Source: Bacteroidales bacterium (GTDB lineage Bacteria > Bacteroidota > Bacteroidia > Bacteroidales > UBA932). From it: a DNA stretch of 8,302 nucleotides. The position numbers and the translations under genes were made by a program. The notes below the pieces were generated by a model. The model saw nothing but the letters and a program-made list of their open reading frames with translations, did no database searches and was not told the origin of the DNA. Location: the NCBI GenBank assembly GCA_017548805.1, contig JAFYZE010000042.1:1-8302 (forward strand). The letters are read 5' to 3'. Positions 1 to 8,302 of the stretch are shown in pieces; positions within the stretch are counted from its first letter, which is position 1, and every line of letters begins with the position of its first letter.

Positions 1-210
1 ACCGAAAAAGAAGCGCCCAAGGGCTCGAAGATCTACATCACCTACAAGAACGGGGAAGGTGTGTTCGCGCCTGCCGATATCAAGATCGAACCGGAAGAGT
101 CCGTCACCAAAGCGACGACAGGAGATGGCATCCTGGCCACTTTCGAGAAAGCCGGGAAGTACACCGTCACCGCTGGAAAGCAGACCGGATCGATTGAAAT
201 CAAAGAGTAA
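1..210 (+). CDS. C-terminal end of an Ig-like domain protein (5' truncated by window)
   Basis: The first frame is open from the window edge and ends in TAA at 208-210, giving 69 visible residues. They alternate hydrophobic and polar residues like a beta-sandwich: a strand with KIYITYKNGEG, then a turn, then AGKYTVTAG, and a last strand ending SIEIKE at the C-terminus. The AGKYTVTAG pattern is typical of the final strands of bacterial Ig-like domains. The start, any signal peptide and any upstream domain lie outside the window. Because the gene sits 12 bp before the DUF2589-like array, and a later array member also carries an Ig-like domain behind its DUF2589 core, this may be the tail of another decorated DUF2589 protein. 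That is inference. The existence of the coding region is well supported by operon continuity and by codon phase to the stop. Confidence 0.75.
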   Translation, partial: TEKEAPKGSKIYITYKNGEGVFAPADIKIEPEESVTKATTGDGILATFEKAGKYTVTAGKQTGSIEIKE

Positions 211-222
211 AGCCGTCCGTTT

Positions 223-993
223 ATGACCAATATCAGACGTATTGTACGTTCCATCCTGCGGGATGTCATCCAGGCCCAGCACGATGCCAATCTCTATTCG
301 CTGCAACTGAGCGAGGAGTATGCGTCCCAAGGCGCTTCCGCCAATTTCAAGATGCCGGCGGCGCAGATCGGCGAGCTGGACATCGAGGTGAAGTACGCGA
401 TCGCTTCGACCAAGCCCGAAGACACCGTGCGGACCGAGGTCAATGCCCGGGAAGAGAAGAAGTTCATCGGCAAGCTGTCCGGAAAACTGTCCGGCCTTGT
501 CCTGTCCAGGATCTCGGCGGAGGTCAAGCGTTCGAAGGTGCCCTACCAGGAGAACGGTTTCGGCTATGTCGACGACCTCCCGAACCATCCCCTGATGAAC
601 CGCTTCGTCTCCGAGGCCATCGCCAAGGCCCTGTCCGAGAACAGCGCCCTGATGTATTCCGACGGGTCTTTCGAGTGCGACTACATCGCCAAGAAAGTCC
701 TGGAGGTCGCGGAACGCCGGGTCCTCGGGCACGGTGACATCCGGGAGCTGTTCGCCCTGCCGGGCGGGGATGTCCTCAAGAAGACGATCGTGGACAAGCT
801 CGACGACAACATCGTCGAGAATGTCCGTAAGATTACCAATGAGGTGAGCATGGAGAGCTACTTCCGCAAGCGTACCGCCAAGCATTCCATCCCGGTCATC
901 GTGGACGCGGAAGCCCTGGCGAAGATGCCGGCGGAGTCCATCCAGACCCTCCGTCTCAAAGTGGGACCGCAGGAGTTGAAGAATGACCAATAA
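223..993 (+). CDS. Divergent DUF2589-like protein with a helical insert
   Basis: This 256-aa protein is not matched by me to a named family, but its ends resemble the DUF2589-like core of its neighbours. Residues 8-30 form an N-terminal helix (DVIQAQHDANLYSLQL, comparable to the DAQ-containing helix of the canonical members). They are followed by strands around residues 40-60 with MPAAQIGELDIEVKYAI, which lines up with the VPLLTIVPVP...DELDIKF stretch downstream. The last residues (TLRLKVGPQEL) resemble the closing strand LVVKVEMGQADI of the next gene. Between them, residues 65-220 are mostly charged and helical, which would be an insert into the core. No signal peptide or membrane segment is seen, and no catalytic motif was recognised. 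The ATG at 223 lies 12 bp after the previous stop with no clear ribosome binding site. I am sure of the gene, moderately sure of the family link, and do not know the function. Confidence 0.85.
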   Translation: MTNIRRIVRSILRDVIQAQHDANLYSLQLSEEYASQGASANFKMPAAQIGELDIEVKYAIASTKPEDTVRTEVNAREEKKFIGKLSGKLSGLVLSRISAEVKRSKVPYQENGFGYVDDLPNHPLMNRFVSEAIAKALSENSALMYSDGSFECDYIAKKVLEVAERRVLGHGDIRELFALPGGDVLKKTIVDKLDDNIVENVRKITNEVSMESYFRKRTAKHSIPVIVDAEALAKMPAESIQTLRLKVGPQELKNDQ

Positions 994-1016
994 GCGCAAA
1001 AGAAGGAACGGACAAT

Positions 1017-1451
1017 ATGAGTGAGACTATCGACATAGCCGTTCTTCTGCGGAACGTCCTCTCCTCCACCATGGATGCCGAGTACCAAGGGTATCAGCGG
1101 TACCTGCAGATCCTGGAGGAGTTGGAGGATGCCGGCTCCGTGGAGTTCTCGTACCTCGATGAGAATGGGGACCGGGCGGCTCTCGAGATCCCAATCGTGA
1201 CACTGGTTCCGCTGACGATGCTCCATATTGAGGAGGCCGTCTTCGATTTCGCCCTCAATGTTAAAGGGAACAGTGAGGATGCGGAAGACCTCAAGGAGTT
1301 GGAACGTTCCGGCATGCTGGTCTCGGTGACCTCGAACCGCGCCGAGGATGAAACCACCAATCTCGTCGTCAAAGTCGAGATGGGGCAGGCGGACATCTCC
1401 TCCGGACTGATCGCGATGCTGCAGAAAAAGAACAACTCCCAGACCGCGTAG
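1017..1451 (+). CDS. Minimal DUF2589-like protein
   Basis: This 144-aa protein looks like the bare core of the family. It has an N-terminal helix (residues 8-38, with DAEYQGYQRYLQ), then strands SVEFSYLD and ALEIPIVTLVPLTMLHIEEA at about 40-80. An acidic loop follows at 85-110, and a last strand LVVKVEMGQADI leads into the helix SSGLIAMLQKK. The PIVTLVPLTMLHI element corresponds to the VPLLxIVPxPxxxI signature of canonical DUF2589 proteins encoded downstream, and GLIAML corresponds to their GLSxxL element. It is closest to the next gene, with the same EYQGY, TLVPLTMLHI and MGQA.IS motifs, so the two are probably an internal duplication. An AAGGA at 1003-1007, 9 nt before the ATG, is one of the few plausible ribosome binding sites in the operon. 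No signal peptide is present. DUF2589 has no established function; a structural or scaffold role is a guess. Confidence 0.88.
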   Translation: MSETIDIAVLLRNVLSSTMDAEYQGYQRYLQILEELEDAGSVEFSYLDENGDRAALEIPIVTLVPLTMLHIEEAVFDFALNVKGNSEDAEDLKELERSGMLVSVTSNRAEDETTNLVVKVEMGQADISSGLIAMLQKKNNSQTA

Positions 1452-1458
1452 AATCGAC

Positions 1459-2583
1459 ATGAATGCTATCAAGAATCTGACGGATGTTCTGAGCAACTCC
1501 CTGACCACGACCCTTGACGTCGAATATCAAGGGTATATGCAGTATGTGCAGATGCTGAAGCGCCTGGAAAGGATGGCTCCGCTGGAGTTCATCTACTATG
1601 ACGATCTGAATGTTCCCCGGGTGTTGAAGGTCCCGCCCATCACGCTGGTACCGTTGACGATGTTGCACATCAAGCGTGCTTCTTTCGATTATTCAGTGGC
1701 GGTTGATGAGGTCGAAAACTTCTCCAAAAATGGCGAACTCTCGGAGCCCGAACTCGCGATGGAGAAGGCAAGGAACGAGGCGCTGAAGATGTGCAAATAC
1801 GTTGAATACAAAGCTACTTCAGCGGGTCAGTACAAACAAAGCGGCAGCGGAACCAAGCCCGTTATCCAGGTGGGTGTCCTCAATACGGACAAGGTCAAAT
1901 CTTTGTACCAAAGGTTAGGGACCGTTCGGGCTGCCACCCCAAAGAAAGCCCTTGCGGAAAGGGATTTGAGTATGAAGATTTTGGCGGAGCCAGCAGTCCT
2001 CAGGAGAAAGATGGTAGACGCCGAGCTCAGCAGATTGATTTCGAATTTGAAGAGCTATAACCAGAAACCCTTTGTCCTGATGGACGGAGTCTTCTATTTC
2101 CCGATGATCTTGGACCGGAGCAGTACAAGTACAGTCCAGACGGCGTACACGTTTGACGGGTTCACGTTGAATCGGAAAGGGGCCTCCCTTCCCACTGGTC
2201 GCGAGCTGAAGTTTTGTCCGGTCAGTGGAACGGCATTCCGGATTTTGGGCGCGCAGATAGAAAAATGTGTGCAGTACACGTTCTATCAGGATGGTAGCGC
2301 GGTGTCGTCCTCCGTGGAAAAACTGGTTCCCGTCCTTTCGACGGCGGGCCTGTCGCCAATCTTCTCGGTCAGCTTTTCCGACGGGGGCTTTGATTTGCTA
2401 TGCGAAGCCAACGTCTACTATGTTCCTGAGGTTGAACGGAGAGTCCTCAGCCAGGCGATCAATGTCAAATCCGAAAAACGCAACAACAGCAATCTCAGAG
2501 TCACGGTAAAAATGGGACAGGCCGGAATCTCCCAGGGGGTGATCAGCCTGTTGAATTCAAAGAACAGAACCAATTTAAAATAG
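1459..2583 (+). CDS. DUF2589-like protein with large inserted domain
   Basis: This 374-aa protein is a sister of the preceding gene. Residues 1-82 match its N-terminal part (VEYQGYMQYVQ helix, then PPITLVPLTMLHIKRA and FDYSVAV). Residues 335-366 match its C-terminal part (INVKSE, LRVTVKMGQAGISQG, VISLL). The roughly 250 residues between have no counterpart in the 144-aa neighbour. They include a helical stretch at 95-200 rich in Lys, Arg and Glu, and a beta-rich stretch at 204-322 with FVLMDGVFYF, GRELKFCPVSGTAF and VQYTFYQDGSAV. Cysteines at 112, 253, 270 and 315 are scattered and form no CxxC pair. The insert is visibly less GC-rich than its neighbours, which may mean a separate origin. The gene starts 7 bp after the previous stop without a ribosome binding site, so translational coupling is likely. 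No enzyme motif, signal peptide or membrane segment is seen. The function is unknown. Confidence 0.88.
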   Translation: MNAIKNLTDVLSNSLTTTLDVEYQGYMQYVQMLKRLERMAPLEFIYYDDLNVPRVLKVPPITLVPLTMLHIKRASFDYSVAVDEVENFSKNGELSEPELAMEKARNEALKMCKYVEYKATSAGQYKQSGSGTKPVIQVGVLNTDKVKSLYQRLGTVRAATPKKALAERDLSMKILAEPAVLRRKMVDAELSRLISNLKSYNQKPFVLMDGVFYFPMILDRSSTSTVQTAYTFDGFTLNRKGASLPTGRELKFCPVSGTAFRILGAQIEKCVQYTFYQDGSAVSSSVEKLVPVLSTAGLSPIFSVSFSDGGFDLLCEANVYYVPEVERRVLSQAINVKSEKRNNSNLRVTVKMGQAGISQGVISLLNSKNRTNLK

Positions 2584-2593
2584 ATAGAAGGGT

Positions 2594-2821
2594 ATGGCTG
2601 GAAATCAGCAGCAGAGAACACCGGGGCTGGAGTGCCCCAAGTGCCATCATTTCATTCCGACGACGATTGCGGAGCTCATCTCCGCGCAGTATCTGGAATG
2701 CCCGCATTGCAGGCTCCGCCTGACAATCAACAAGAAAGAATCGAAGAAGGCGCTGGATATCCTGAGCAACGTGAACGACGCCCAGAACAATCTCGATAAA
2801 GCGAGCAAATTCAACCGTTAA
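2594..2821 (+). CDS. Small zinc-ribbon protein
   Basis: This 75-aa protein carries two Cys pairs, CPKC at residues 14-17 and CPHC at 36-39, separated by 18 residues. That is the layout of a four-cysteine zinc ribbon. The residues between the pairs (IPTTIAELISAQYLEC) fit a short hairpin with a helix. After the second pair comes a basic turn with LRLTINKKESK, then an amphipathic helix to the end with DILSNVNDAQNNLDKASKF. Zinc binding is a strong prediction from the Cys spacing, but nothing shows whether the ribbon binds nucleic acid or protein. It sits between the two kinds of DUF2589 genes with gaps of 10 and 17 bp, so a role as a small partner or adaptor in the same assembly is reasonable inference. 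The GAAGGG just before the ATG is only 1 nt away, too close to act as a normal ribosome binding site. Confidence 0.85.
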   Translation: MAGNQQQRTPGLECPKCHHFIPTTIAELISAQYLECPHCRLRLTINKKESKKALDILSNVNDAQNNLDKASKFNR

Positions 2822-2838
2822 ACCAAAGTGAGGATCCC

Positions 2839-3951
2839 ATGCCACCCAGGGACTTGGACGTAAACAGACCCCTCCGGTCGCTCAATTTCAGTCATCTGAT
2901 CGGTTCGCCGCTCCTGGCTTGCATCGACGCGCAGGAGAAGGCCGCCCAGTGCTCGCGTGAGTATATCGAAGAAGTGGGCCTGGAAACCGATGACGACGGC
3001 AAGAAGGAAGCCATCATGGTCTCCTTCTCGTTCATACAGGATGGACAAGCCGTAGAGCTGACCGTCCCCCTCCTCTCCATCGTCCCCATCCCGTATTTCT
3101 CGATCGATCTCCTGGAAATCAATTTCCGGGCGAATGTCAAGATCTCCGATGGTGAAATCACGGCCAGCTATGCCGCCGGCAATGATTCGAAGAATGTCCA
3201 GAGTTCGCTGTACAATGTGGAAAGTGCCGTCGACATCCACGTCAAGGCGTCCCAGGACGATATGCCCGCAGGCCTGAGCAAGGTCCTCGGCGTTCTCGGG
3301 AACAGTATCCGCAGCTACAGCGACAGCGTGGAGATTCCCGCCGACGCCGACGACCAGCTGGTCCGCCTGCTGTGCGACGTGACCCATACGCCGGCCATCT
3401 TTACCCGGAAGGAAGACGGGGAAGAAGTGGTGGACAAGGTCCTGACCCGGATTGCGGAAGTGGATGCCATGCAGGTCCGTGAGTTGTATATCAATTACAA
3501 GGATTATCCTTTCCGGGACCTCGGAGCCCTGTCCATCTTGACCCACTTGACGAACCTGACCCTCACCTACGATTCGGCCAAGGTCCAGAAGCTCGATTTC
3601 AAAGCCGTCCCCAATCTGACGCGCCTCAAGCTGACCGACCTCAACGAGGATCCCTGGGGCGGGGTAATCTTCGACTTCGAGCCCCTGACGATGCTCCGTA
3701 TCCTCCGGCTCAAGAAGATCACCAACTACTCGGAACACCGGCTGAATCTGAAGAAGCTCCCGCTGCTCCAGCGGGTGAACCTGACGGAATGCCAGATCAA
3801 GGAACTCGACGTTTCCGACAACGATTACATCGAGATGGTCAGCCTCCGGAAGTCTCAAGTCGAGAAACTCCTTGTCGACCCGGGATTCAGCGAATACTAC
3901 CTGTATGGGGACCCCGTCGGGGAAGTGGTCAAGAATGAAGAAACGACGTAG
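2839..3951 (+). CDS. DUF2589 domain protein with C-terminal leucine-rich repeats
   Basis: This 370-aa protein has two parts. Residues 15-160 are a canonical DUF2589 domain: SHLIGSPLLACIDAQ begins the N-terminal helix, then EVGLE, a strand with VSFSF, the signature VELTVPLLSIVPIPYFSID, and a closing AVDIHVKASQDDMPAGL followed by the helix KVLGVLGNSI. Residues 205-350 hold degenerate leucine-rich repeats, with strand cores such as LTNLTLTYD, LTRLKLTDL, LRILRLKKI, LQRVNLTEC and IEMVSLRKS at intervals of about 20-25 residues. LRRs normally mediate protein binding. This fits a recognition arm carried on the DUF2589 core, but the partner is not known. GAGGA at 2830-2834 lies 4 nt before the ATG. 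No signal peptide or transmembrane helix is present, unlike many surface LRR proteins of this phylum. DUF2589 is confidently recognised, its function is not established, and the LRR call is clear by pattern. Confidence 0.92.
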   Translation: MPPRDLDVNRPLRSLNFSHLIGSPLLACIDAQEKAAQCSREYIEEVGLETDDDGKKEAIMVSFSFIQDGQAVELTVPLLSIVPIPYFSIDLLEINFRANVKISDGEITASYAAGNDSKNVQSSLYNVESAVDIHVKASQDDMPAGLSKVLGVLGNSIRSYSDSVEIPADADDQLVRLLCDVTHTPAIFTRKEDGEEVVDKVLTRIAEVDAMQVRELYINYKDYPFRDLGALSILTHLTNLTLTYDSAKVQKLDFKAVPNLTRLKLTDLNEDPWGGVIFDFEPLTMLRILRLKKITNYSEHRLNLKKLPLLQRVNLTECQIKELDVSDNDYIEMVSLRKSQVEKLLVDPGFSEYYLYGDPVGEVVKNEETT

Positions 3952-3963
3952 CCGGACCATGCC

Positions 3964-5286
3964 ATGGGTGAAGACAAGTTAAAACAGATCAACAACACCT
4001 TCAACCAGGTGCCCTTCTCGCATCTGCTCGGGTCTCCGTTGCTGGCGTGTATCGATGCGCAGAAGCAGGCGGCGAACTCGTCGATCGACTATATCTATTC
4101 CGTCGGTTTTTACGAGGACAGCACCGAGGTCGTCAACGTGACGTTCAACTTCTATGCGGACGGCCGTCCGGCGACGCTTGTCGTTCCCCTGCTGACGATC
4201 GTCCCCGTCCCGTTCTTCTCGGTGGACGAGCTCGACATCAAGTTCAACGCGATGGTGGACCTGCACGAGGAGGAGATCGATGAATTCAAGGGCAATTACT
4301 CCAAGCCGGTCAGCGAGTCCAATTCGAACTATACCTACGACTACTTCTCCAACCTGAATGTCCACATGGCCGCCTCGAAGGACCACGTTCCTACCGGACT
4401 GAGCACGCTGATGGGCATGCTCGATGCCAGCATCCGGGTCGTGGAAGCGTCGGACACCGCCGATGTCGTCTCCTCCCTGCGGCTGGACCGGAAGGAGTTT
4501 GACATGCTCGTTGGGGATGAGGTCCAGCTGTACCCCAGCTCCCAGGGAGAGTTCACCTGGAGCCGCAGCAATCCGGAAGTGGTCGAGCTCGACCAGACCG
4601 GCAAGGTCAAGGCCTTGAAGGTGGGAAAATCGCGGATCTATGTCCGGACGGAGAAAGGAGAGCGGGTCGCTACGTGCCTGGTGCGGGTGGTCGTCCCGGA
4701 ATTCGTGCCGCCCCCCAATCCGGACCCGATCCCTTCTCCGAGTACTCCTCCGCCTCAACCGGGTCCTGTTCCTCCGCCCATTTACACGTCCGGATCCGGC
4801 TCTGGATCAGGTTCATTCGGTTTTGGCCCGGGCGGAGCTGGCGAAACGTCCGGAGGCGTAGGCCCCCGCGTGGACGGCGGTGGCTCCAAGCTGGCGCCTA
4901 TTCTTGAGGGTATGGTCGGCGGCTCCATCCTGGCTGACCATTCCGCAAAGGAAGCTATCGAGGCAGCCTTAGACAAAATCGATCTGGCCCAGGACCAGGC
5001 TTCACGTCTCGCCGAGGAGATCAAAGACAAGGTTTCAAGTATCTACGAGGAGGTCAAACAGAAGGTGACGGAAACCTCTAAGGGTGGGAAGTCATCTGTC
5101 GATAAAGCGAAGGACAAGATTTCAAAAGCCGTCAACGATACGGTTAAGAAAGCAAAGGACGCGGCTGAGAAGTTACCCTCTACAAAGAAGGCCTCCACAG
5201 CGAAGAAGTCCACCTCTGCGAAAGCGGCGAAGACGGCCACTAAGACGAAGGCGGCACCGAAGAAGACTGCTTCCAAAAAGAAGTAA
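3964..5286 (+). CDS. DUF2589 domain protein with Big2-like domain, Pro/Gly linker and Lys-rich tail
   Basis: This 440-aa protein is strongly modular. Residues 18-160 are a canonical DUF2589 domain (FSHLLGSPLLACIDAQ, then VVPLLTIVPVPFFSVDEL, then HMAASKDHVPTGLSTLMG). Residues 171-243 match a bacterial Ig-like group 2 (Big2) domain: LRLDRKEFDMLVGDEVQL, FTWSRSNPEVVELDQTGKV and KALKVGKSRIYVRT are its usual strands. Residues 245-273 are proline-rich and 275-318 are Gly/Ser-rich with SGSGSGSGSFGFG. Residues 319-400 form a long charged helix with AKEAIEAALDKIDLAQDQ and SSIYEEVKQKV. The last 35 residues are almost all Lys, Ala, Thr and Ser, like a histone H1 or nucleoid-protein tail. Big2 domains are usually extracellular, yet no signal peptide is seen here. 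The start at 3964 follows the previous stop by 12 bp, and an overlapping ATG at 3959 is out of frame. A polyanion-binding or anchoring tail is inference. Confidence 0.92.
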   Translation: MGEDKLKQINNTFNQVPFSHLLGSPLLACIDAQKQAANSSIDYIYSVGFYEDSTEVVNVTFNFYADGRPATLVVPLLTIVPVPFFSVDELDIKFNAMVDLHEEEIDEFKGNYSKPVSESNSNYTYDYFSNLNVHMAASKDHVPTGLSTLMGMLDASIRVVEASDTADVVSSLRLDRKEFDMLVGDEVQLYPSSQGEFTWSRSNPEVVELDQTGKVKALKVGKSRIYVRTEKGERVATCLVRVVVPEFVPPPNPDPIPSPSTPPPQPGPVPPPIYTSGSGSGSGSFGFGPGGAGETSGGVGPRVDGGGSKLAPILEGMVGGSILADHSAKEAIEAALDKIDLAQDQASRLAEEIKDKVSSIYEEVKQKVTETSKGGKSSVDKAKDKISKAVNDTVKKAKDAAEKLPSTKKASTAKKSTSAKAAKTATKTKAAPKKTASKKK

Positions 5287-5305
5287 CCTCTTTTCACCCC
5301 AAGCG

Positions 5306-6148
5306 ATGAAAGCCCTCCATATCAACAGCACCCTTCCTTTCCAAGGTGCCGAGTTCTTCATTGAGGATCCGATCATCCTGTGTACGATCCTTTCCGCCCT
5401 CATGTGGCGGAAACTGAACGGGGAGATCAAACTCTATACGGACAAGGTCGGATACGATTATTACAAGCGGGTGGGCCTGCTGGGCCTGTATGACGGGGGA
5501 ATCGACGTGGATACGCTGGAGCATCTTCCCTCGACGATCGACTACAGGATCTTCTGGGCCGGCGCCAAGCTTTTCGCCCTGCGGAAAGAGGGAACACCCA
5601 TCGCGATGATCGACAACGACCTGGTTGTCTGGAAACCGATCGGGTCGCAGTTCGCCTCGCATCCCGTCACCGTTCTCCATACCGAGAATCTCGACGAGCA
5701 GGTGTATCCTTCCGGATATGTCCTCTTGACGCGGAATGGGTATCAGTACAACCCCGCCTGGGACTGGAATGCGCGTCCGTGCAATACGGCCCTCGCCTGT
5801 TTCTCCGATGCGGCTTTCCTGGACTACTATATCGGATGCGCCATCGATTTCATGGAAGGAAACGCAGCGCCGGCCCACGAAAACGTGTCCCGGATGGTCT
5901 TTGCCGAGCAGCGGATCCTGGCCATGTGCGCAGCAGAAAAGGGGATCGCGGTGCATACCCTGCTGGGCGATCCTTTCGAGCGGCAGGACCTCGTCACCCA
6001 TATCTGGGGCGCGAAGGTCTATGCCCGGAACGATCCGGAGCAGAACCGGATCCTCTGCAATTTCCTGCTGCAGTGCATCTTGCGGCACTTTCCCGAGTTC
6101 TCCTTCGGCACTCCGAAGCTCCAGTCCCTCCTGGAAACCTACAGGTAG
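5306..6148 (+). CDS. GT-A-type glycosyltransferase, DUF6734-like
   Basis: This 280-aa protein begins with ATG at 5306, 19 bp after the previous stop. The frame is open farther upstream, but there it encodes an arginine-rich shadow of the Lys-rich tail, so that extension is rejected. Features typical of the family are visible: GEIKLYTDKVGYDYY at 39-53, which is the LYTD segment of the nucleotide-sugar binding half; FWAGAKLFAL at 83-92; the metal-binding MIDNDLVVW at 101-109 with Asp103 and Asp105 as the DxD pair; PCNTALACF at 158-166; FAEQRIL at 199-205; and THIWGAK at 231-237, comparable to the C-terminal HxxGxK metal ligand of GT-A enzymes. The protein probably transfers a sugar from a nucleotide donor in the cytoplasm, with no signal peptide or membrane helix. 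The acceptor is unknown. As the last gene of the DUF2589 operon it may glycosylate one of the operon's proteins, which is inference. Confidence 0.85.
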   Translation: MKALHINSTLPFQGAEFFIEDPIILCTILSALMWRKLNGEIKLYTDKVGYDYYKRVGLLGLYDGGIDVDTLEHLPSTIDYRIFWAGAKLFALRKEGTPIAMIDNDLVVWKPIGSQFASHPVTVLHTENLDEQVYPSGYVLLTRNGYQYNPAWDWNARPCNTALACFSDAAFLDYYIGCAIDFMEGNAAPAHENVSRMVFAEQRILAMCAAEKGIAVHTLLGDPFERQDLVTHIWGAKVYARNDPEQNRILCNFLLQCILRHFPEFSFGTPKLQSLLETYR

Positions 6149-6260: not shown

Positions 6261-7091
6261 TCATAGTTCATTTATATTGATCTCCAGTTCAGTATCCTGA
6301 GAGATTTCCACTACTGCGCCGGCGTCGCGCAGTGATAGCAGCAGGGACTCCTTCTCGGAGGAATTGTCGTTATTGTCAAAGGTGAGTGTGACGGGAAGGC
6401 TGTAGTTCAGGTTATGGTTGCGCTGTTGTCCGTACAGGATGTCCAAGACTTCGTCTTTATTTCTGCCCCAGGAGGTAACCGTGTAAGAACATTTGCTTCT
6501 GAAGGTGGTCTCGCCAATCTTGCTTATCGGATCGAACTCGTTCTTGACCTTGATGATTTTCATCACATCGAAGATGGCGCCGAGTTCCTTGAGCGAGGCT
6601 ACAATCTGTTGGAGCGTTTTGGTTTCCTCCGCGCTGAATTCGACGCCGAAATTGCCTGAAGTATTGATTCCGCCGCGCTGGCGCCAGCCGTCCCCGAGGA
6701 CGACGTCCGCCACTTGAGTGCTATTCTTGGGGGCAGCATTCACCCAAACCTTATAGTTGATGGTAACGAGACTCTTGTCCTTGAAGACGGGCTTGCTTGT
6801 GGAAGTGGACGGGCGAGTCACCGTGTTGGAAGTAGACGGACGTGTCACTGTGTTGGAGGTGGTCGGGCGTGTTACCGTGTTGGAAGTAGACGGACGAGTC
6901 ACCGTGTTGGAGGTAGACGGACGAGTCACCGTGTTGGAGGAGGTCGGACGTGACACCTTGTTGGTGTCGTTGCCTGAGTCGATGTTGAATCGCTCGTACT
7001 TGCTCACTGGATGATCCACCCGGCCGTTCGTTATCTCCCTGCCGGAGTTCTTGAGCCGCTCGTCGCGCTCTCTTCTTGTTTCTTCTGCCAT
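6261..7091 (-). CDS. Thr/Ser/Pro-repeat protein with alpha/beta C-terminal region
   Basis: I do not recognise a named family. The start is placed at ATG 7091 (MAEETRRERDERLKN, 276 aa). The frame extends upstream to a GTG at 7172, but that part translates an AT-rich leader and is unlikely to be coding. Residues 1-46 are highly charged. Residues 47-100 are six 9-residue repeats of the type TRPSTSNTV, a flexible linker. Residues 107-276 are a folded alpha/beta region. Two helix-strand units there, LQQIVASLKELGAIFDVMKI (160-179) and LLLSLRDAGAVVEI (250-263), recall the helix-AGA-strand element of the ribosomal L7/L12 C-terminal fold, a weak resemblance judged by eye. There is no signal peptide or transmembrane segment. 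The gene is visibly more AT-rich than the dipeptidase beside it, which suggests accessory origin. It converges on the DUF2589 operon, but a functional link is unproven. Confidence 0.85.
   Translation of the reverse strand: MAEETRRERDERLKNSGREITNGRVDHPVSKYERFNIDSGNDTNKVSRPTSSNTVTRPSTSNTVTRPSTSNTVTRPTTSNTVTRPSTSNTVTRPSTSTSKPVFKDKSLVTINYKVWVNAAPKNSTQVADVVLGDGWRQRGGINTSGNFGVEFSAEETKTLQQIVASLKELGAIFDVMKIIKVKNEFDPISKIGETTFRSKCSYTVTSWGRNKDEVLDILYGQQRNHNLNYSLPVTLTFDNNDNSSEKESLLLSLRDAGAVVEISQDTELEININEL
6792..6953 (-). repeat. 27-bp in-frame tandem repeat, six units
   Basis: Six head-to-tail 27-bp units encode the 9-residue motif TRPSTSNTV and close variants in residues 47-100 of the minus-strand protein. 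The four inner units differ from one another at only a few bases, while the outer units (SRPTSSNTV and TRPSTSTSK) are degenerate. Unit length is a multiple of three, so gain or loss of units by replication slippage would keep the frame and change only the linker length. Confidence 0.93.
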
Positions 7092-7173
7092 AGGATTAGT
7101 GTTTAGTGTTAAAGTTAAGATTGTTTTACTGACTTCTTGAAGCGACTTTTCGTCTGTAAGGATGTAGAACACC
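7092..7173 (-). promoter_or_regulatory. AT-rich leader with possible promoter for the 276-aa gene
   Basis: These 82 bp lie between the dipeptidase stop and the ATG at 7091 and are far more AT-rich than the flanks. Read on the minus strand, TAACTTTA (7110-7117) matches seven of eight positions in my reading of the Bacteroidota -7 element TAnnTTTG, about 20 nt before the start codon. No convincing -33 TTG is found at the right distance. No strong terminator for the dipeptidase is seen either, so read-through transcription is also possible. Confidence 0.3.
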
Positions 7174-8302
7174 CTACGGCCTCACATACCGGTCTCCCGT
7201 CTGTGCCTTCACCGCGTCGATGAATACGGGGGCGTAGGCCGGGGAGGTGCGGCGGCCGGGCACGATGACGCCGTTCTGGCTCGGCTGCATGGTCTGGTCG
7301 TTGTGCTTGACGATGAGAAGCTTCGCCAGCTTGTCCCAGCGTTCCATCATCTTCGTCGTGTAGGCCTCCGTCTTGGCGGTCAGGAAATCGACGCGCTCCT
7401 GGTGGGTGAGGTTCGTGACCTGCTTCTCCACCTCCGGCTGCTCGGCGGCGTAGAAGTCCTCCAGCTCGGTCTGGGCCTCGCGGAGGTCGCCGATCATGGC
7501 GCTCCAGCGCGGATAGACCATGTTCGCCACCCAGTTGTTCATCCAGAAGGCGCTGTCGAAGCTGAATTCGCGGATGTTGTTGTTCTCGCGGCGGAAGGGC
7601 TCCGGAATGCGGTTGATGCTGCAATAGACCGGGACATAGGCCACCATCGTGGCGTCGTCCATGTTGAAGTAGGTCACGCCGCCCACCTCGTCGGGCAGGA
7701 AAGAGCGCATCTGGCACACCATCGTCATGCCGCTCTGCTGGCAGCCGATGGGGCGCTCACGGAACATCTTGGTGCCGTCGGGGGCTTCGTAGTTCACGGG
7801 CTGGTTGCGGTAGGGCGAGGCCCACGGGCCGGCGCTCACATCGGCGGTCATGTCCAGGGCGGTACCCTCGTAGTGGTCGCGCATGTCGTTCATCAGGTCA
7901 CGGACGCTCAGCGGCTTGTCGGGCTTGATCCAGAGGGGGAGTTCGTCGCAGATCTCGGTGTGGCCGTTGATGAAGGGAAGGTATGCGTCCATCTTCTCCG
8001 CATCGGTGTGGTGGCGGAAGAAGCTCCAGACGCGGGCCTCGCAGTAGCGGATGGCGCTGAAATCGAGCGGGCCGTAGGCCTCGCGGAAGCTGAAGTCCGC
8101 GTCGGGACCGTCGTACCAGCCCATTTCACGGGCGAAGGAGATGACGTCGGCGCTGTACATGCATTCGCCCTCGACGATGCAGAAGCCCTTCTTCTTGTCG
8201 GCCTTCTTGGCCTGCGGGAACTGGCGGATGCGGCTGGCATTGGCATAGGCGGAGATGCAGTCGTCCGGGACGCGTCGCGCCACCCACACGGCCCCCTTGC
8301 GG
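7174..8302 (-). CDS. Peptidase family C69 dipeptidase, C-terminal part (5' end outside window)
   Basis: The last 375 residues are visible, ending YVRP before a TAG. The right edge reads RKGAVWVARRVPDD, so the GTG at 8287-8289 is an internal Val and the gene runs on beyond the window. C69 hallmarks are present: GAVWVARRVPDDCISAYAN followed by ASRIRQF, then MVCQMRSFLPDEVGGVTYF, and FDSAFWMNNWVANMVYPRW near the middle. The family are N-terminal nucleophile cysteine peptidases that cleave dipeptides. The catalytic Cys is exposed by processing of the N-terminus, which is not in view here, so activity cannot be judged. Bacteroidales versions often carry a signal peptide, which also cannot be checked. 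It is the most conventional gene in the window, is GC-rich, and probably marks the host chromosome next to the accessory locus. Confidence 0.93.
   Translation of the reverse strand, partial: RKGAVWVARRVPDDCISAYANASRIRQFPQAKKADKKKGFCIVEGECMYSADVISFAREMGWYDGPDADFSFREAYGPLDFSAIRYCEARVWSFFRHHTDAEKMDAYLPFINGHTEICDELPLWIKPDKPLSVRDLMNDMRDHYEGTALDMTADVSAGPWASPYRNQPVNYEAPDGTKMFRERPIGCQQSGMTMVCQMRSFLPDEVGGVTYFNMDDATMVAYVPVYCSINRIPEPFRRENNNIREFSFDSAFWMNNWVANMVYPRWSAMIGDLREAQTELEDFYAAEQPEVEKQVTNLTHQERVDFLTAKTEAYTTKMMERWDKLAKLLIVKHNDQTMQPSQNGVIVPGRRTSPAYAPVFIDAVKAQTGDRYVRP

What the first reader, a model, noticed from the sequence alone, without database searches (positions are those of the whole stretch)
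223..5286. Operon of serial DUF2589-fold paralogs, each decorated differently
Two canonical DUF2589 proteins (2839 and 3964) share SPLLACIDAQ, VPLLxIVPxP and a terminal PxGLSxxxG element. Two shorter relatives (1017 and 1459) share PITLVPLTMLHI-type and MGQAxISxG elements that align to the same places, and a third (223) is more divergent. Appended or inserted modules differ: a helical insert, nothing, a large insert, LRRs, or Big2 plus linker plus Lys tail. This suggests a multi-subunit assembly with a common scaffold fold and swappable functional arms. DUF2589 itself has no function I can name.
Basis: partly seen in the sequence, partly recalled or inferred. Interest (0 to 1): 0.78.

Follow-up and report, generated by a model that had tools for sequence, protein, structure and literature searches.

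The report
Undescribed multi-subunit assembly linked to enzymes
This stretch of an uncultured Bacteroidales-like bacterium carries an enlarged copy of a gene set seen in several bacterial phyla, whose related building-block proteins often sit next to, or are fused to, enzymes that cut cell walls, lipids or proteins or may transfer sugars, hinting at an unrecognised cell-attack or release machine.

Summary
g2, g3, g4 and g5 share the DUF2589 core (E 4e-12 to 1e-51, profile without window or L001 rows). g1 (223) is at best a remote relative: profile-profile P 3e-4 (probability 39%), 14 controls P 0.12 or more, no HMM hit.

The short genes are the conserved part: DUF2589 - g1 family (B) - DUF2589 - Zn ribbon, in that order in 59 of 77 loci. 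All 12 of 296 Bacteroidota genomes with B have it beside DUF2589. The window is an enlarged version whose paralogs group mostly by operon position, not by genome.

Unrelated degradative enzymes sit beside the module in many loci: muramidase in 23 loci, other wall hydrolases, lipases, proteases, a DNase-I-like protein. DUF6734, adjacent here, is fused to DUF2589 elsewhere. Best reading: an undescribed cytoplasm-made assembly carrying or organising effector enzymes (0.37). Function is inferred, and the muramidase link is confined to part of the family.

The parts
1..210 (+). C-terminal 69 residues of a DUF2589 paralog (third one of the enlarged operon), weak Ig/Fn3-like match
   Evidence: 82.6% identical over 69 residues to the C-terminus of the 361-aa DUF2589 protein L001:6299-7384; DUF2589 call on that L001 gene; Pfam Fn3_arc below cut-off
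223..993 (+). g1, B family, 256 aa: conserved partner gene of DUF2589; helix plus strands with a helical insert at residues 75-209
   Evidence: B profile without window/L001 rows E 9e-59; model pLDDT 86.5; profile-profile to DUF2589 P 3.2e-4, probability 39%; adjacency in 12 of 12 Bacteroidota genomes with B
1017..1451 (+). g2, 144 aa, undecorated DUF2589; counterpart of the second DUF2589 (C) of the basic module
   Evidence: Pfam 30.6 bits over cut-off 23; profile E 2.4e-19; groups with position-4 proteins of enlarged operons and with basic C proteins
1459..2583 (+). g3, 374 aa, DUF2589 core interrupted by an insert of about 200 residues (roughly residues 130-335)
   Evidence: profile E 4e-12 in two pieces; Pfam below cut-off
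2594..2821 (+). 75-aa Zn ribbon with two CxxC, fourth member of the conserved module
   Evidence: family found in 70 of 82 sequences (81 loci and the window), all 70 with two CxxC; 97% to L001
2839..3951 (+). g4, 370 aa: DUF2589 (residues 17-156) plus leucine-rich repeats (160-368)
3964..5286 (+). g5, 440 aa: DUF2589 (6-159), Big_2 (187-238), Pro/Gly linker, helical and Lys-rich tail
   Evidence: Pfam DUF2589 56.0 and Big_2 30.0 bits, both over cut-off
5306..6148 (+). DUF6734 protein, 280 aa, with an invariant D-x-D (D103, D105) typical of metal-dependent glycosyltransferases (recalled rule); fused to DUF2589 in relatives
   Evidence: Pfam 47.1 bits, cut-off 27; alignment of 10; DUF6734 in 4 of 125 DUF2589 proteins, L029 = DUF2589 + Big_2 + DUF6734

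Best explanation
The window holds most of an enlarged copy of an undescribed gene system. Its core is a conserved quartet: a DUF2589 protein (A), the g1-type protein (B), a second DUF2589 protein (C) and a two-CxxC Zn ribbon. I propose that these signal-less proteins assemble in the cytoplasm into a multi-subunit particle or filament (long N-terminal helices packing as the core, beta sandwiches outside, arms such as Ig, Big_2 or LRR exposed for binding), and that the assembly carries or positions effector enzymes encoded beside it or fused to a subunit: peptidoglycan hydrolases, lipases, proteases, nuclease, and here the DUF6734 putative glycosyltransferase. Shown: gene content, order, shared core of g2-g5, position-wise grouping, enzyme linkage in part of the loci, and the DUF6734 fusion. 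Inferred: physical assembly, loading of the enzymes, and action on other cells (release by lysis or an unknown route).
For: Order DUF2589-B-DUF2589-Zn in 59 of 77 loci; all DUF2589 copies in one cluster in 12 of 12 chosen genomes; B only in genomes with DUF2589, and next to it, 12 of 12. Paralogs group mostly by operon position. Linkage to unrelated degradative families: Muramidase 20, Peptidase_C1 4, Trypsin_2 2, Peptidase_C25, Pesticin, GH108 1 each of 114 downstream proteins; in hand-picked neighbours Patatin, Pesticin, Trypsin_2, C1 (6 of 10 with an enzyme family), Amidase_3, Tle1-like lipase, GH19, M15, CHAP, patatin, subtilase (7 of 10); DNase-I-like. In 18 of 19 genomes chosen for a muramidase at the locus it is the only PF11860 gene, and 0 of 7 chosen without it have one anywhere. 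No signal peptide in 22 of 23 muramidases; in 7 of 21 downstream ones the next gene encodes a predicted exported protein of 149-162 aa, as a periplasmic immunity protein might be (simple hydrophobicity rule). DUF6734 in 4 of 125 DUF2589 proteins. No strongly hydrophobic segment starting in the first 24 residues in 250 DUF2589 ORFs, 66 B, 70 Zn.
Against: In the even draw of 296 Bacteroidota, 5 of the 19 DUF2589 genomes have PF11860, but only G002, the chosen centre, has it at the module; in the other four it lies on other contigs, and 17 muramidase genomes have no DUF2589. Most of the 25 families shown of 50 in the downstream tally are not degradative enzymes, and I made no per-locus count or random-locus control. 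No injection or secretion part was recognised near the module; of 32 DUF2589 genomes 3 have VipA and 9 a contractile sheath over cut-off, so the route out is unknown. 14 of 21 muramidase loci have no immunity-like next gene. None of the enlarged operons is among the 23 muramidase loci; their partners are DUF6734 and papain proteases. No oligomer was predicted. 13 of 77 loci lack B. Clustering has exceptions: G100 has DUF2589 at two places, and L068 and L073 are two contigs of one MAG.
Confidence: 0.37

Rival explanations
1. A regulated lysis or release cassette: the DUF2589 proteins make a particle or scaffold, and the linked wall hydrolases (endolysin-type families) open the producing cell, under LytTR control.
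For: Endolysin-type families, muramidases without signal peptides; LytTR domain in 26 of 73 upstream proteins.
Against: In 20 of 21 downstream muramidase loci no membrane protein of 60 aa or more lies between module and enzyme (smaller ORFs not looked at; in L015, L058, L063 and L066 the gene after the enzyme has a membrane-like segment). Lipases, proteases, DNase-like and DUF6734 partners are not lysis enzymes.
Confidence: 0.2
2. An intracellular defence or self-killing system: the assembly senses phage or stress and switches on the linked enzyme inside its own cell.
For: Sparse distribution (19 of 296 Bacteroidota, 1 of 146 Cyanobacteria, 7 of 299 Pseudomonadota, each count including the chosen centre); patatin, protease and nuclease partners resemble effectors of known defence systems (recalled).
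Against: No PADLOC hit for 10 window proteins; AAA-type ATPases in only 2 of 114 downstream proteins, so no recurring sensor; wall hydrolases in the cytoplasm would not reach their substrate.
Confidence: 0.15
3. A housekeeping structural scaffold (compartment or envelope-linked structure) whose enzymes remodel the cell's own wall or surface; DUF6734 would glycosylate its own subunits.
For: DUF6734 fusion; Archaeoglobus DUF2589-related genes AF0414-AF0417 reported up on lactate (one passage of PMC3949148), which suggests metabolic rather than attack use.
Against: Patchy occurrence and unrelated enzyme families at the same place; the muramidases lack signal peptides (22 of 23).
Confidence: 0.15
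4. Tandem duplicates of an uncharacterised domain with no joint function; neighbours are passengers.
For: No core protein has a known function; the muramidase link is absent from most DUF2589 genomes of the even draw.
Against: Conserved order across phyla, position-wise grouping and exclusive B-DUF2589 linkage are hard to explain without joint function.
Confidence: 0.12

Closest known systems
Pfam DUF2589 (PF11655)
   Same: g2, g4, g5 pass the model's cut-off
   Different: The family is described only as a domain of unknown function; the four-gene module and its enzyme linkage turned up in no paper of the open-licence library searched
Archaeoglobus fulgidus AF0414-AF0417
   Same: Several short DUF2589-related genes in a row (one passage of PMC3949148)
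   Different: An archaeon; its sequences, neighbours and any B or Zn partner were not examined here
Type VI secretion and extracellular contractile injection systems
   Same: Similar list of cargo enzymes (muramidase, amidase, Tle1-like lipase, patatin), some with an exported neighbour that could be an immunity protein (likeness recalled)
   Different: No sheath or VipA gene beside the module; VipA in 3 and sheath in 9 of 32 DUF2589 genomes over cut-off
Phage tail-like particles and lysis cassettes
   Same: Ig-like decorations and endolysin-type enzymes
   Different: PHROGs matches below E 0.001 are three, all on g5 around its Big_2 region, one of them a head protein with Ig domain; nothing below 0.001 for the other core proteins

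Membership tests
DUF2589 (PF11655) | whole-protein score over Pfam's cut-off of 23 bits | tested here: met
   g2 30.6, g4 83.4, g5 56.0 bits
DUF2589 (PF11655), g3 | same cut-off | tested here: not met
   19.4 bits, but profile of relatives E 4e-12 in two pieces around an insert
DUF2589 (PF11655), g1 | same cut-off | tested here: not met
   no match, E 1.2 with own profile; remote relation suggested only by profile-profile P 3.2e-4, probability 39%
Leucine-rich repeat protein (g4 arm) | LRR solenoid fold | tested here: met
Type VI secretion system | sheath subunit TssB/VipA (PF05591) with the module | tested here: not met
   over cut-off in 3 of 32 DUF2589 genomes, none beside the module, none in G001 of the closest relative; divergent Bacteroidota forms could be missed
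Contractile injection system | contractile sheath (PF04984) with the module | tested here: not met
   over cut-off in 9 of 32 DUF2589 genomes, on other contigs or more than 0.4 Mb away, none in G001
Known anti-phage defence system | PADLOC model match | tested here: not met
   0 matches for 10 window proteins at E up to 1; library of 2023
DUF6734 (PF20508) | score over cut-off 27 bits | tested here: met
   47.1 bits
Any solved fold for the DUF2589 core | structural match to residues 1-159 of g4 | tested here: inconclusive
   LRR filled the match lists; the core was not predicted alone

The most novel reading that the evidence does not exclude
The DUF2589-B-DUF2589-Zn module is the core of a previously unrecognised, non-contractile protein weapon found in several bacterial phyla: a cytoplasm-built particle whose position-specific beta-sandwich subunits carry binding arms and load interchangeable enzymes, aimed at other bacteria in the basic form (wall hydrolases, lipases) and perhaps at eukaryotic microbes in the enlarged gut and rumen form (LRR arms, papain proteases, DNase-like protein, DUF6734 glycosyltransferase).
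Probability: 0.25. Interest if true: 0.92.

Novelty: categorically new. Interest (0 to 1): 0.7.

Why it matters
A conserved four-gene module found in several phyla seems to have gone unnamed because its domain is a DUF. If it is an effector-bearing assembly, it adds a new class beside phage-tail-like and secretion-system weapons, with arms and cargo that can be read from the genome. It also gives concrete handles (B as a marker, DUF6734 fusions, muramidase linkage in one branch) that make the function of DUF2589 directly testable.

Tried and rejected

Rows dropped before counts: one search was given 114 of the 121 downstream proteins counted (left out: one probably spurious ORF of L001, one very long ORF of L043, two of L064, three of L077); one search was given 73 of 83; one search was given 2 window proteins and 123 of the 156 listed. 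The 20 proteins were hand-picked as likely enzymes or recurrent neighbours; 4 and 3 of 10 showed no enzyme family. ORFs were called by a simple longest-ORF rule, so some neighbours in GC-rich loci are spurious. The genome scan kept the best 80 of 251 candidates, so the 77 loci lean towards close relatives, and some are cut by contig ends. The B search scored at most 8 candidates per genome, so B could be missed in some genomes. The 19 muramidase genomes were chosen because their locus carries the enzyme (in L041 it lies about 3 kb upstream); 4 of the 23 such loci were not searched. The 32 genomes leave out four with only short DUF2589 pieces (G027, G068, G141, G161) and the genomes of most other loci.

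Full report
What is in the window. Eight genes run in one direction, the first cut by the window edge, with 7-23 bp between those from 223 to 6148: the tail of a DUF2589 paralog (1-210), g1 (223-993), g2 (1017-1451), g3 (1459-2583), a 75-aa Zn ribbon (2594-2821), g4 (2839-3951), g5 (3964-5286) and a DUF6734 gene (5306-6148). The nearest relative, L001 (uncultured Bacteroidales RUG352), has the same order with 60% (g3) to 97% identity and shows what lies upstream: two more whole DUF2589 genes and a DNase-I-like protein (E 1e-6 to DNase I; Exo_endo_phos). The window's own genome is not held.

The shared core. With a profile that leaves out window and L001 rows, g4, g5, g2 and g3 match DUF2589 at E 1.4e-51, 2.5e-36, 2.4e-19 and 4e-12; best of 800 shuffled controls 0.79. 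In g3 the two matched pieces (38-127, 336-368) meet almost without a gap in the profile, so about 200 residues are inserted. g1 is different: no match by HMM, but profile-profile comparison gives P 3.2e-4 over helix 1 and two strands, while 14 control comparisons (reversed profiles, neighbouring families) give 0.12 or more; hhalign's own probability is only 39%. The g1 model (pLDDT 86.5) has a helix and strands at both ends of a helical insert. In L030 and L044 the B gene is only 121 and 116 aa, and the L030 protein keeps both ends, so the insert can be missing in nature. I call g1 a possible remote relative.

The module elsewhere. A scan of species genomes found 251 candidates and returned 76 loci. 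Of 77 loci (these plus L077), 64 have B, 61 have B and Zn, and 59 have the order DUF2589-B-DUF2589-Zn; by record titles the loci come from Bacteroidota, Akkermansia, Cyanobacteria, Rhodospirillales, Chlorobaculum, Acetivibrio, SAR324 and Acidobacteria. In 12 of 12 chosen genomes all DUF2589 copies lie in one cluster, two in the basic and five to seven in the enlarged form; exceptions elsewhere are G100 with two places and one MAG with two contigs (L068, L073). In an even draw of 296 Bacteroidota genomes, 19 have DUF2589 and 12 have B; all 12 are among the 19 and each has a B match within about 170 bp of a DUF2589 match. The other 7 have short pieces only (4) or a layout without B (3). Other layouts exist: DUF2589-B-unknown 190-aa gene, and DUF2589 pairs or triplets without B. 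A quick tree of 132 domain sequences groups paralogs mostly by operon position rather than by genome: positions 2, 3 and 4 form their own clades; the second DUF2589 of basic operons sits with position 4 and g2 (support 0.98), the first with position 2 (0.95); position 1 falls into two groups and the later positions are less clean, several nodes being weak. So the enlarged operon looks like the basic module with added, stably inherited subunits.

The enzymes. Of 114 downstream proteins (of 121 listed for 57 loci), Muramidase is matched by 20, DUF6734 by 6, Peptidase_C1 by 4, Trypsin_2 by 2, and Pesticin, Peptidase_C25 and GH108 by one each; most of the other families shown (25 of 50) are unrelated to degradation. 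Upstream, 26 of 73 carry LytTR. Hand-picked neighbours in other loci are Patatin, Pesticin, Trypsin_2, Amidase_3, a Tle1-like lipase, GH19, M15, CHAP, patatin, subtilase; 7 of the 20 hand-picked proteins showed no enzyme family. Plasmid records with DUF2589 (4) add a peptidoglycan-binding protein some 2 kb downstream in Smac51 and one, plus an endonuclease/exonuclease/phosphatase protein, on the other strand in Vibrio; the Streptomyces one shows nothing recognised, the Burkholderia one has no annotation in that stretch. That several unrelated wall-hydrolase families sit at one module suggests that cutting peptidoglycan belongs to its function in part of the basic forms. In 18 of 19 genomes chosen for a muramidase at the locus it is the only PF11860 gene, and none of 7 chosen without it has one. 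Against this, in the even draw only the centre G002 has it at the module, while four other DUF2589 genomes have it on other contigs and 17 muramidase genomes have no DUF2589. The muramidases lack signal peptides (22 of 23); in 7 of 21 the next gene is a small exported protein (simple rule).

How it may work. The core proteins show no N-terminal membrane segment or signal-like start (13 of 250 DUF2589 ORFs have a hydrophobic stretch further in), yet carry Ig, Big and LRR arms that are usual on exposed surfaces, and many come with signal-less degradative enzymes. The model that covers most of this is a cytoplasm-built assembly that carries or positions effectors. What is not explained is the way out of the cell. 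Contractile machines are missing from most of the genomes tested. Lysis by the linked hydrolase is possible, but in 20 of 21 loci no membrane protein of 60 aa or more lies between module and enzyme. Defence from within is possible for lipase, protease and nuclease partners, but not obviously for wall hydrolases.

Literature. One held paper mentions DUF2589 (I saw one passage): a run of short DUF2589-related genes in Archaeoglobus fulgidus, up during growth with lactate. Searches for PF11655, DUF6734, the Archaeoglobus locus names (same paper only), and muramidase with LytTR and Bacteroides gave nothing further. Most subscription papers and preprints are not held, so a description elsewhere cannot be excluded.

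Verdict. The system looks new; its function is inferred, not shown.

Noticed in passing
window 6261-7172, minus strand: A 303-aa ORF with SNTVTRPST linker repeats; the same repeat fills the linker of a DUF2589 protein in another locus (L044 10136-12097; 83% over 54 residues). Its C-terminal domain has no clear match in the loci searched, L001 included, so it may be a stray arm of the system or only a shared simple repeat.
   Followed up: partly
window 7174-8289, minus strand: C69-family peptidase, cut by the window edge; L001 has a longer copy on the same side with a signal-peptide-like start. Probably a separate gene.
   Followed up: partly
L078-L081: Phage contigs in which 3 to 11 ORFs per locus share an N-terminal MKxLxxYI-type peptide (0 in three control loci), reminiscent of the capsid-targeting peptide of T4 internal proteins (recalled); the same region has a 150-163 aa protein with two copies of a VPLLTIVPIP-like strand motif of DUF2589.
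   Followed up: partly
MT839761.1 (L174): A 4,044-base unverified 'Bacteriophage sp.' record from human faeces encodes two DUF2589 proteins on one strand; it looks like bacterial module DNA filed as phage.
   Followed up: partly
L077 2956-3438: In a Bacteroides-type contig held as viral, the second DUF2589 gene ends early (160 against 204 aa in L042) just before an ORF that looks like an integrase (recalled, not tested); the module may be hit by an integrating element.
   Followed up: no
L030 12159-12524, L044 8580-8930: B genes of only 121 and 116 aa; the L030 protein keeps both ends but lacks room for the helical insert.
   Followed up: partly
L070 11590-11955, L165 11097-11525: Small proteins of 121 and 142 aa with a similar VIAHGN motif directly downstream of the module in two different groups, no Pfam match.
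   Followed up: partly
L069 about 15000-19600: Dense short repeats (reading as FQYIPCSGS / FNTSHVAVQ in ORFs) beside the module in Acetivibrio; looks like a CRISPR array, not checked.
   Followed up: no
L035, L037, L040, L045, L046, L054, L062: Enlarged operons without a detectable B gene, so B may be lost once more DUF2589 paralogs are present.
   Followed up: partly
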